Shown piece after piece: positions 27,011 to 29,305 of a stretch of DNA of 64,000 nt. Numbering within the stretch: position 1 is the first letter of the stretch; every line of letters begins with the position of its first letter. The notes under the pieces are model-generated. The model was given only the letters and a program-made list of their open reading frames with translations, did not search any database and was not told the origin of the DNA. The position numbers and the translations under genes are program-made. The DNA is taken from contig KE159698.1 of the NCBI GenBank assembly GCA_000403415.2, forward strand, positions 62,001 through 126,000, given 5' to 3'. This stretch comes from Firmicutes bacterium M10-2. GTDB lineage: Bacteria > Bacillota_I > Bacilli_A > Erysipelotrichales > Erysipelotrichaceae.

Positions 27011-27067
27011 AGATATCACCTTCTTAAATTATGATACAATGGAAATACAAAGATAGGAAGTGTAATG

Positions 27068-27838
27068 ATGAGATTTTCAACGATTGATCGCTCAGATCCA
27101 AAGTCTGTTCAGATCGCGAAATATTTAAAAGAGCAATGTATAGAGCGCGGCTGGGTCTATGACGAAGAAGCTCCGCAGATCATTTTATGCATCGGTGGAG
27201 ATGGAACCTTATTGCGTGCGATCCATCAATATATCGACTGTCTTGAAGAAGTCGCATTCATTGGGATACATACTGGGACTCTCGGTTTTTTTACAGATTA
27301 TACCCAAAATGAAATTCCCCGTTTTTTAGAAGATATCCAAAATAATATTCCGTATATCGAGCAATCTTCCTTGTTGAAATTAAAAGCCGAAAACGGAAAT
27401 GTGTATTATGCACTCAATGAAATGAGAATCGAATCCTTTTCAAAAACATTGAAACTTGATATTTACTTGGATCATGAATTTTTCGAACGAGCGACCGGAT
27501 CAGGCGTATGTATTAGTTCGCAGGCCGGATCGACAGCTGTTAATCGTGCTTTGAATGGTGCTGTAATCGATAGTGGGTTGGATGTATTGCAGTTGTGCGA
27601 AATTATGCCTATTTCTCATAAGAGCCATCATTCGTTGCGAAATCCATATATCATGAATATTAATCGGGTGATTACGATCATTTCGGATGAATTGCCTGAA
27701 GCGCAATTATGTTATGATCACTTGGAATGTTCTTTAAAAGGGAATCATAAAGTGGAAATACGGGCGGCAGATAAAAAAGTACGATTCGTGCGATATCGTA
27801 CTTACTCTTATTTAAAACGATTGAAGAACTTATATTAA
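27068..27838 (+). CDS. nadK: NAD kinase
   Basis: This enzyme of about 256 residues phosphorylates NAD to NADP. It shows the GGDGT motif (ILCIGGDGTLLRAIHQY near residue 40) and TGTLGFFTDY. NEMRIES and GSGVCISSQAGSTAVNRALNGA form the NAD-binding site, followed by IMPISHKSHHSLRNP. Two adjacent ATG codons are possible. The second, at 27068, is better spaced from AGGAAG. In many Firmicutes nadK neighbours a CYTH gene, as here. Its last five codons and stop lie in a terminator hairpin that is duplicated downstream. Confidence 0.93.
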   Translation: MRFSTIDRSDPKSVQIAKYLKEQCIERGWVYDEEAPQIILCIGGDGTLLRAIHQYIDCLEEVAFIGIHTGTLGFFTDYTQNEIPRFLEDIQNNIPYIEQSSLLKLKAENGNVYYALNEMRIESFSKTLKLDIYLDHEFFERATGSGVCISSQAGSTAVNRALNGAVIDSGLDVLQLCEIMPISHKSHHSLRNPYIMNINRVITIISDELPEAQLCYDHLECSLKGNHKVEIRAADKKVRFVRYRTYSYLKRLKNLY

Positions 27839-27851
27839 AAATTAAGTTCTT
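27822..27851. repeat. 30-bp direct repeat, copy 1 (nadK end plus terminator stem)
   Basis: This copy covers the last codons and stop of nadK and a hairpin with arms AAGAACTTA and TAAGTTCTT. It is identical to 28041-28070. Here the T-run expected after the stem is missing, because the inserted element starts directly after the second arm. Confidence 0.9.
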
Positions 27852-27927
27852 CAGAGTGTTGACAAACTACCTATTTTGAAAAAATTAAATTTCAATAAAA
27901 TAAAAGTGGGTAAAAAGGTCTAAAAAA

Positions 27928-27972
27928 AGAGTAATATTAGGTACTTAAATACCTCAAATTGCTCTTTTTTTA
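27928..27972 (+). terminator. Terminator inside the insertion, likely serving nadK
   Basis: AGAGTAAT pairs with ATTGCTCT, and an inner AGGTA pairs with TACCT, followed by a T-run. This would stop nadK transcripts now that copy 1 of the repeat has lost its T-run. Confidence 0.65.
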
Positions 27973-27995
27973 TTCATTTGTGGGAGAAAAATAAA

Positions 27996-28040
27996 AAGCT
28001 GTGACAAAGCCGATTTGAAAAATCGACTTTGTCAACAGCC
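27996..28040 (-). terminator. Long hairpin at the right end of the insertion, likely terminating rodA
   Basis: Arms GCTGTGACAAAGCCGATTT and AAATCGACTTTGTCAACAGC form a 19-20 bp stem with a 3-base loop. On the minus strand it is followed by TTTTTATTTTT, a good intrinsic terminator for rodA. Confidence 0.65.
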
Positions 28041-28070
28041 TGAAGAACTTATATTAAAAATTAAGTTCTT
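28041..28070. repeat. 30-bp direct repeat, copy 2 (rodA end)
   Basis: This copy is identical to 27822-27851. It contains the last four codons (including the stop) of rodA on the minus strand and retains the T-run on the plus strand (28068-28076). It therefore looks like the original nadK terminator context. Confidence 0.9.
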
Positions 28071-29284
28071 TTTTTTCTTTTTCCGATTCGTATGCCTTTT
28101 TTTCTCGCTTGCGGACTCGAGTTGGAAATGAATCCAAAAGCAATAAAGTAAGAAAGGATACTACTACCTCCGTATGAAATAAGCGGGAGGGTAATTCCAG
28201 TGATCGGAAGCAGACCGACGATCATTCCTAAGTTCTGGATTTGCTGGTAAAAAAGCATTCCGATCACGCCGATTACAATCAGCCGATCGGTACGGTTTTT
28301 CATATTGTATGCGATCTTGCATAAATAAAGATCGAATATGAAACATGAAATTAGGATCAAGGTTGTTCCGAGCAGCCCGAAACTTTGACCGAAAGCCGCA
28401 AAAATAAAGTCGGTATGCGCTTCAGGAATGGCAATAATATTCGGCTGAAGCCCATAACCGGTTAGTCCTGCACTCCCTAAAGAAAGCAAAGCGGTGTAAA
28501 GCTGATTGGAACTGCCTCGGATATTGCTTTCGGGATCAAGCCAAGCATCAATACGCTGTAAACGATAACTTGAAATGAACGTATGCAGGAAATCTTTCTG
28601 AAAAAAGTATAAGTAAAAAAAAGTTCCGAGAACTAGAACAATCAATCCCACTAAAATATAAATATATTGCCTACGAATCCCCGAACACATGAGCATGACT
28701 AAGATTGTAACCGTGATGATAATACAAACTCCGGTATCCGGCTGAAGGAAAATAAGGATCAGTGGCGGAAGGAGCACTTTTCCGATTTCCCAAAGCATGA
28801 TTAAATCGTCATGCATTGTCGGATTCTTATGCTTTTTTTGAAATTTCGTAATCGTTTGCGCTGTGAGGATGATCAATACAATCTTGATAAATTCCGAAGG
28901 TTGAAAACTGGAAATAAAAGGAATTCGAAACCAAGATACCGCACCGTTCAATGTCGGAGCAAGAGGCAGATTGAATCCGAACAGTCTTTGCGTAAGCATA
29001 GAAAAAAATAAATAGATCAGACATCCCATCAAAAATTTGTAAGCCGGTTTCATATAACGGTAAAGAATACGATTATGGAAATGACCGATGATTATCATGG
29101 TCATAAAACCGACAATGTACCAAATAATCTGCATGATCAAATACCGTGTTCCGGATCCGTAACTGATCAAGTTAAATGAAGAATATATCGCCAGGCAACT
29201 GAGAGTGCACATCCAAAGAAGGATCAATATAAATCCAATATCGATGCGCCATGTATGTTTTCCGATTTTTATTGTATGTTTCAC
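28061..29284 (-). CDS. rodA: Rod-shape/division glycosyltransferase RodA (SEDS family)
   Basis: This polytopic SEDS protein of about 407 residues has ten predicted membrane segments and polymerises lipid II into glycan strands. Family landmarks are the cytoplasmic-side FQPSEFIKIVLII, the PDTG motif in FLQPDTGVCIIIT, PEAHTDFIFAAFGQ, and the C-terminal PITGITLPLISYGGSS. RodA is favoured over FtsW by the sequence around NQLYTALLSLGSAGLTGYG and by its isolated context. I prefer the GTG at 29284, which AAGGGGG precedes by 6 bases, over the upstream ATG at 29305. The gene diverges from mutS. Its last codons lie in a duplicated repeat. Confidence 0.88.
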   Translation of the reverse strand: MKHTIKIGKHTWRIDIGFILILLWMCTLSCLAIYSSFNLISYGSGTRYLIMQIIWYIVGFMTMIIIGHFHNRILYRYMKPAYKFLMGCLIYLFFSMLTQRLFGFNLPLAPTLNGAVSWFRIPFISSFQPSEFIKIVLIILTAQTITKFQKKHKNPTMHDDLIMLWEIGKVLLPPLILIFLQPDTGVCIIITVTILVMLMCSGIRRQYIYILVGLIVLVLGTFFYLYFFQKDFLHTFISSYRLQRIDAWLDPESNIRGSSNQLYTALLSLGSAGLTGYGLQPNIIAIPEAHTDFIFAAFGQSFGLLGTTLILISCFIFDLYLCKIAYNMKNRTDRLIVIGVIGMLFYQQIQNLGMIVGLLPITGITLPLISYGGSSILSYFIAFGFISNSSPQARKKGIRIGKRKKRT

Positions 29285-29305
29285 AAATGACCCCCTTGTT
29301 TTCAT

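What the first reader, a model, noticed from the sequence alone, without database searches (positions are those of the whole stretch)
27822..28070. Small element inserted exactly at a terminator, with a 30-bp duplication that preserves both gene ends
The segment 27852-28040 lies between perfect 30-bp copies that contain nadK's last codons and stop, the nadK terminator stem, and rodA's last codons. The insertion is directly between the hairpin and its T-run. The element's ends share TGTTGACAAA in inverted orientation, and it carries hairpins with T-runs facing each convergent gene. So it duplicates the target so that neither gene is cut, and it supplies replacement terminators. My recollection is that IS1182-type elements have similar ends and can give long duplications at palindromes.
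Basis: partly seen in the sequence, partly recalled or inferred. Interest (0 to 1): 0.63.

Follow-up and report, generated by a model that had tools for sequence, protein, structure and literature searches.

The report
Terminator-hairpin-duplicating miniature IS1182 element
A 191-base piece of parasitic DNA has copied itself at least 56 times into this bacterial genome, almost always exactly at the RNA stop-signal hairpins behind genes, and it duplicates the whole hairpin as it lands, so that the genes on either side usually stay intact.

Summary
A 191-bp element (27852-28042) lies between perfect 28-bp copies of a terminator stem-loop. The genome holds 56 letter-identical copies, 2 copies of a 189-bp variant and a few gapped ones. 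At 46 of 55 identical copies that keep a direct repeat, the repeat is an end-to-end hairpin, different every time (about 4% in nearby control windows). A same-genus relative has the empty nadK-rodA site with one hairpin. The genome also carries full 1646-bp insertion sequences with matching ends, the same kind of duplications, and an IS1182-family transposase (NF033551, 399 bits). So this is a non-autonomous element (MITE), most likely moved in trans by that IS. Its target appears to be a DNA stem-loop, duplicated whole. Relatives of the IS in Erysipelotrichaceae, Clostridia, Enterococcus, Lactococcus and Providencia do the same and form one supported branch. Two other IS1182 branches make 4-6-bp duplications or none (IS1272 replaces its hairpin). 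Hairpin targeting is known for the family; whole-hairpin duplication was drawn in 2017 as a hypothetical pathway. I found no paper documenting it, but subscription reviews and ISfinder were not searchable.

The parts
27824..27851 (.). left copy of the duplicated target: complete stem-loop AAGAACTTATATTAAAAATTAAGTTCTT; holds the nadK stop codon (27836-27838)
   Evidence: identical to 28043-28070; folds end to end, 9 bp stem
27852..28042 (+). 191-bp non-autonomous IS1182-type element (MITE), CAGAGTGTTGACAAA...TTTGTCAACAGCCTG; strand sign is the arbitrary orientation used here
   Evidence: 56 letter-identical copies in the genome
27852..27866 (+). left terminal inverted repeat
   Evidence: 62 exact matches in the genome; 14 of 15 match the 1646-bp IS end CAGACTGTTGACAAA
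28028..28042 (-). right terminal inverted repeat (CAGGCTGTTGACAAA on the minus strand)
   Evidence: 59 exact matches in the genome
27921..27972 (.). central hairpin with A-run before and T-run after, possible terminator for either direction
   Evidence: predicted -18.6 kcal/mol; a hairpin lies at the same place in relatives' elements by eye, but RNAalifold gives no consensus helix there
27996..28041 (-). right-end hairpin made from the terminal repeat and an inverted copy of it, followed on the minus strand by TTTTTATTTTT: predicted terminator facing rodA
   Evidence: -27.3 kcal/mol; terminator scan hit 28034-28002; kept by compensatory pair changes in other genera
28043..28070 (.). right copy of the duplicated stem-loop, followed by the original T-run; holds the rodA stop codon (28061-28063)
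27065..27838 (+). nadK (NAD kinase), upstream convergent neighbour, intact
28061..29305 (-). rodA (shape-determining protein), downstream convergent neighbour, intact

Best explanation
The segment is a miniature, transposase-less member of a group of IS1182-family elements whose target is a DNA stem-loop. The transposase acts in trans and most likely comes from the 1646-bp IS present in the same genome. [quoted passage not shown] Gap repair then leaves one complete hairpin on each side. Strong palindromes in this genome are mostly intrinsic terminators between genes, so insertions collect there, and because the whole hairpin is duplicated both gene ends usually survive. Shown: the copies, the hairpin duplications, the empty focal site, the full-length IS with the same duplication pattern, and the confinement of this pattern to one branch in a small IS1182 tree. 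Inferred: mobilisation by this particular IS, cruciform recognition, the 5'-foot attack, and that the element's own hairpins terminate transcription.
For: 56 identical 191-bp copies. At 46 of 55 copies with a direct repeat of 8 bp or more, the repeat is a hairpin of at least 7 pairs with at most 3 unpaired end bases, against 4.3% of same-length windows from the flanks; with a looser rule it is 49 of 55 against 8%. Hairpin sequences differ at every site. Full 1646-bp IS copies have CAGACTGTTGACAAA ends and hairpin duplications, and the transposase scores 399 bits against the IS1182 model (cut-off 270). Empty focal site with a single hairpin in same-genus genome G141. About 190-bp relatives with the same kind of duplications in other genera. 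The same pattern in named relatives. Hairpin-duplicating transposases form one branch, 95/93 support. The 5'-foot pathway with whole stem-loop duplication was drawn as a hypothetical alternative by Wan et al. 2017 (PMC5678879).
Against: The MITE shares only about 15 terminal bases with the IS, so another, unseen transposase could move it. Four insertions have short repeats: three cover about half of a hairpin and one (C16:94071) shows no hairpin. Several ISEfa7 copies in Enterococcus, with the same ends, show no repeat. No transposition was observed, and no transcription data were available.
Confidence: 0.85

Rival explanations
1. The target is the act of transcription termination (paused RNA polymerase, T-run, or RNA hairpin) rather than the DNA palindrome itself.
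For: Most sites are gene 3' ends: 25 convergent and 26 co-directional against 2 divergent by a simple ORF rule. The bases flanking the repeat are rich in A on the left and T on the right (means 4.8 and 4.4 of 8).
Against: Some targets are clean palindromes without a T-run, including one inside a long open frame (C12:391315, GATTCCTTTAAAAAAAGGAATT) and others with 0-3 T after the stem (C21:92841, C12:299317, C16:35931). The repeat ends at the stem feet, not at the T-run.
Confidence: 0.15
2. The MITE is moved by a different IS1182-type element that is absent from the assembly or hidden in an assembly gap (for example the gapped locus C1:356089-358300, whose two outer ends both match the MITE's left end).
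For: Internal sequences of MITE and IS are unrelated beyond the terminal repeats, and a 2030-N gap lies between two MITE-like left ends.
Against: The resident IS has intact, nearly identical copies, 13-14 of 15 end bases in common, and the same hairpin duplications.
Confidence: 0.25
3. The repeats and identical copies are artefacts of assembly or of tandem duplication unrelated to insertion.
For: The assembly has N gaps in several longer copies, and 56 identical copies could be one collapsed consensus.
Against: Each copy has its own unique flanks and its own hairpin. Two copies share a different 189-bp variant, so variants are not erased. The single-contig genome G007 shows the same arrangement. 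The empty focal site exists in a relative.
Confidence: 0.02
4. The element has been recruited by the host as a portable bidirectional terminator or insulator and is kept for that use.
For: The right-end hairpin keeps its pairing through compensatory changes in other genera; length stays 189-191 bp in the complete copies from four genera.
Against: 56 identical copies look like a recent burst, not selected sites. The right-end hairpin includes the presumed transposase-binding repeat, so its conservation needs no host role.
Confidence: 0.06

Closest known systems
IS1272 and TnSha1/TnSha2 of staphylococci (IS1182 family; PMC4923244, PMC5678879)
   Same: same transposase family; target is a hairpin of any sequence, often a transcription terminator; sites downstream of genes
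   Different: IS1272 deletes or replaces the hairpin and leaves no duplication; here the whole hairpin is duplicated. The IS1182 relatives found here with no duplication fall in a different branch of the tree; IS1272 itself was not knowingly placed on it
ISCfr1-type IS1182 elements (Proteobacteria)
   Same: IS1182-family transposase, similar size (about 1605 bp)
   Different: ends are ATTCTGTTGAAAAAGTAG and the flanking repeat is 4-6 bp (GGCC / CGGCCG) in the two copies examined
ISEfa7 and relatives (Enterococcus, Lactococcus, Providencia plasmids)
   Same: same end motif CAGACTG(T/A/C)(T/A)GACAAA, same tree branch; the E. raffinosus, Lactococcus and Providencia copies carry stem-loop duplications of 20-28 bp
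   Different: 44-46% identity for the enterococcal transposases and 37-41% for the others; the E. faecium and E. faecalis copies checked showed no duplication
MITEPye1 of Paracoccus yeei (IS1182-related MITE; PMC11578231)
   Same: non-autonomous element with IS1182-type ends, intergenic, strongly folding
   Different: 4-bp duplications and only 1-3 copies per chromosome, as reported there

Membership tests
IS1182 family (autonomous partner) | transposase matches the IS1182 equivalog model | tested here: met
   NF033551, 399 bits against cut-off 270; Pfam DUF772 + DDE_Tnp_1_6
IS1182 family (autonomous partner) | terminal inverted repeats flanking one transposase gene, about 1.5-2 kb | tested here: met
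   1646 bp, 15-bp perfect terminal repeats, 475-aa ORF
IS1182 family, palindrome-targeting members | insertion into a hairpin independent of its sequence | tested here: met
   intact 1646-bp copies and 46 of 55 MITE copies with distinct hairpins
IS1272-like (stem-loop replacing) | target hairpin lost, no duplication | tested here: not met
   hairpin present on both sides; single in the empty site
MITE of an IS1182-type element (the 191-bp element) | short, no transposase gene, terminal repeats shared with a resident IS, same type of target duplication, multiple copies | tested here: met
MITE of an IS1182-type element (the 191-bp element) | mobilised in trans by the resident transposase | not testable with these tools
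   needs a transposition assay
REP/BIME or RUP-type interspersed repeats | REP: 20-40-bp palindrome linked to a TnpA-REP (RAYT) transposase; RUP: IS630-type TA duplication | tested here: not met
   191 bp, CAG...CTG ends, 18-32-bp hairpin duplications; family definitions from general knowledge

The most novel reading that the evidence does not exclude
One branch of IS1182 transposases reads DNA shape: it finds a stem-loop of any sequence and joins at both 5' feet, duplicating it whole, while two sister branches make a short fixed duplication or replace the hairpin. A roughly 190-bp parasite of this branch has persisted across several Erysipelotrichaceae genera by landing in intrinsic terminators without cutting the neighbouring genes.
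Probability: 0.6. Interest if true: 0.65.

Novelty: new variant of a known kind. Interest (0 to 1): 0.52.

Why it matters
A transposase that targets structure instead of sequence is unusual and could be tested directly: the enzyme is 475 residues, the donor is 191 bases, and any palindrome should serve as target. The three branches of IS1182 transposases with three outcomes (hairpin duplicated, hairpin lost, short fixed duplication) give a natural comparison for finding which residues set the point of attack. It also shows how a mobile element can reach more than 50 copies in a 2.4-Mb genome with little damage, by using terminators as safe sites, and it warns annotators that duplicated terminators and short repeats behind genes may be transposon footprints.

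Tried and rejected
Rfam: nothing near a gathering score, so not a known RNA family. Sigma-70 promoter scan of the region: none. DNA search of 272 family genomes: apart from own, G173, G246, G200, G007 and G156, I took the matches to be short low-complexity hits and did not examine them one by one. Same-genus genome G140 gave no candidates for any query, even rodA, so it says nothing about empty sites. The 2212-, 2234-, 822- and 350-bp 'elements' contain N gaps and their lengths are not used. RNAalifold supports only the right-end hairpin, not the central one. No structure prediction was run: the family assignment was already clear. The literature searches found no description of whole-hairpin duplication by an IS1182 element other than the hypothetical pathway in PMC5678879; subscription reviews and ISfinder were not searchable.

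Full report
The observation. The window has perfect direct repeats at 27822-27851 and 28041-28070 and an element with inverted ends between them. The stretch folds much better than shuffles on both strands. It is the only full copy in the window.

Copies in the genome. A search of the own assembly (2.41 Mb, 22 contigs) with the element gave dozens of full-length, letter-identical matches. Exact end motifs occur 62 times (left) and 59 times (right). After fetching all of them, I count 56 identical 191-bp copies and two 189-bp copies that share the same three differences. The remaining ends belong to copies interrupted by N gaps or rearranged. Comparing sites fixes the boundaries: the element is CAGAG...GCCTG, 191 bp, so TG at 28041-28042 is element and the focal duplication is 28 bp.

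The duplications are hairpins. Nearly every copy is flanked by a direct repeat of its own, mostly 18-32 bp long, which is a complete stem-loop with its feet at the repeat ends. Requiring at least 7 pairs and at most 3 unpaired end bases, 46 of 55 repeats qualify, against 4.3% of same-length windows from the flanks. With a looser rule it is 49 of 55 against 8%. The sequences differ at every site. By a simple ORF rule, 25 sites lie between convergent genes, 26 between co-directional genes, 2 between divergent genes and 3 perhaps inside an ORF. The set is therefore dominated by terminators, but a clear palindrome inside a 615-codon open frame (C12:391315) and sites with few T after the stem suggest that the palindrome, not the T-run, is what is recognised. 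Three exceptions have short repeats covering about half a hairpin (C1:135125, C1:161458, C12:560075), and one shows no hairpin (C16:94071).

The empty site. In G141, of the same genus, an alignment runs unbroken from nadK into rodA, with one hairpin (AAGAACCTTTATTAGAGGTTCTT, -9.4 kcal/mol) and its T-run at the place where this genome has hairpin-element-hairpin. A second site (C12:154265) is likewise unoccupied in G141, with a different hairpin sequence at the same place. In the reconstructed empty site the two stop codons are 3 bases apart.

The likely source of transposase. The genome holds 1646-bp elements with perfect CAGACTGTTGACAAA ends, of which five carry an intact 475-aa transposase gene; those with readable flanks have hairpin duplications of 21-25 bp. 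The protein matches the IS1182 family model (399 bits, cut-off 270) and Pfam DUF772 and DDE_Tnp_1_6. The MITE shares 13-14 of the 15 end bases with it but no interior sequence. A 557-bp relative without gaps, whose surviving coding part is 93% identical to the transposase, also has a hairpin duplication. Mobilisation in trans by this IS is thus the simplest reading, but it is inferred.

Relatives. Elements of about 190 bp, 70-81% identical, occur in other genera of the family: at least 13 copies in the single-contig genome G007, diverged copies in G200, and others in G173, G246 and G156. Those that can be read on both sides mostly show hairpin duplications. The right-end hairpin, formed by the terminal repeat and an inverted copy of it, is kept by paired changes (5 of 18 pairs with changes on both sides). 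Full-length relatives with the CAG..TGTTGACAAA end motif and stem-loop duplications were found in Erysipelotrichaceae, Merdibacter massiliensis, Amedibacillus dolichus, Alkalithermobacter thermoalcaliphilus and Oscillospiraceae, and, with slightly varied ends, on plasmids of Enterococcus raffinosus, Lactococcus and Providencia rettgeri. Several E. faecium and E. faecalis ISEfa7-type copies had no repeat.

Three branches, three outcomes. In a tree of 29 IS1182 transposases, the 18 with hairpin duplication form one branch (95/93), the two ISCfr1-type with 4-6-bp repeats another (100/99), and the four without a repeat a third (100/100). The tree is small and has long branches, so this is a first indication. 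The own genome also has a member of the third branch (542 aa, 284.5 bits). At C16:249876 it sits exactly where the right-hand hairpin copy of a MITE insertion should be, followed by TTGTTTTT. That looks like one element duplicating a hairpin and another later replacing one copy.

Mechanism. Wan et al. (PMC5678879) proposed that IS1272 attacks the 3' feet of a cruciform and loses the hairpins, and drew as an alternative attack at the 5' feet, which would duplicate the whole stem-loop. The elements here fit that alternative. Half-hairpin repeats would fit one attack at a foot and the other in the loop. Furi et al. (PMC4923244) showed by RNA-seq that five of the TnSha1 target hairpins are terminators. 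Hairpin targeting is therefore known; duplication of the hairpin as the regular outcome, and its confinement to one branch, is what this case adds. I found no earlier description in the open-access library, but reviews such as Siguier et al. 2015, which mention palindromic targets, could not be read.

Terminators. On the rodA-facing (minus) strand the element carries a strong predicted terminator (28041-27996, then TTTTTATTTTT). On the nadK-facing strand the central hairpin has a T7 run but a weak G+C content, and the right copy of the target hairpin keeps the original T8. Termination was not measured.

Noticed in passing
L266 (own genome C16:249700-253500): A second type of IS1182-family element (542-aa transposase, GGGGCTGTAACG ends, no target repeat) stands in place of the right-hand hairpin copy of a 189-bp MITE insertion, as expected if it replaces hairpins like IS1272.
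   Followed up: partly
L268 (own genome C16:231788-233916): A 2.1-kb segment with MITE sequence at both ends and a 32-bp hairpin duplication outside; it may be a composite transposon carrying host DNA and an IS200/IS605-like remnant, but a 10-N gap leaves misassembly open.
   Followed up: partly
L062 (own genome C1:356089-358300): Two inverted left halves of the MITE with an outer hairpin duplication and a 2030-N gap between; possibly an unseen autonomous partner.
   Followed up: no
own genome C1:135125, C1:161458, C12:560075: MITE insertions whose duplication is about half of a hairpin, leaving a full hairpin on one side only; may reflect one attack at the foot and one in the loop.
   Followed up: partly
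L067 621-2266 (1646-bp IS) and plasmid relatives such as L202, L297: An end of the IS can itself form a terminator hairpin from the terminal repeat and an inverted subterminal copy, followed by a T-run; this may shield the transposase gene from outside transcription.
   Followed up: partly
own genome C12:501409 and C16:249876: Two copies share a 189-bp variant with the same three differences, so a second sublineage of the MITE exists.
   Followed up: no
G140 (same genus): This genome gave no candidates for any query, even rodA, and appears to be withheld or masked.
   Followed up: no
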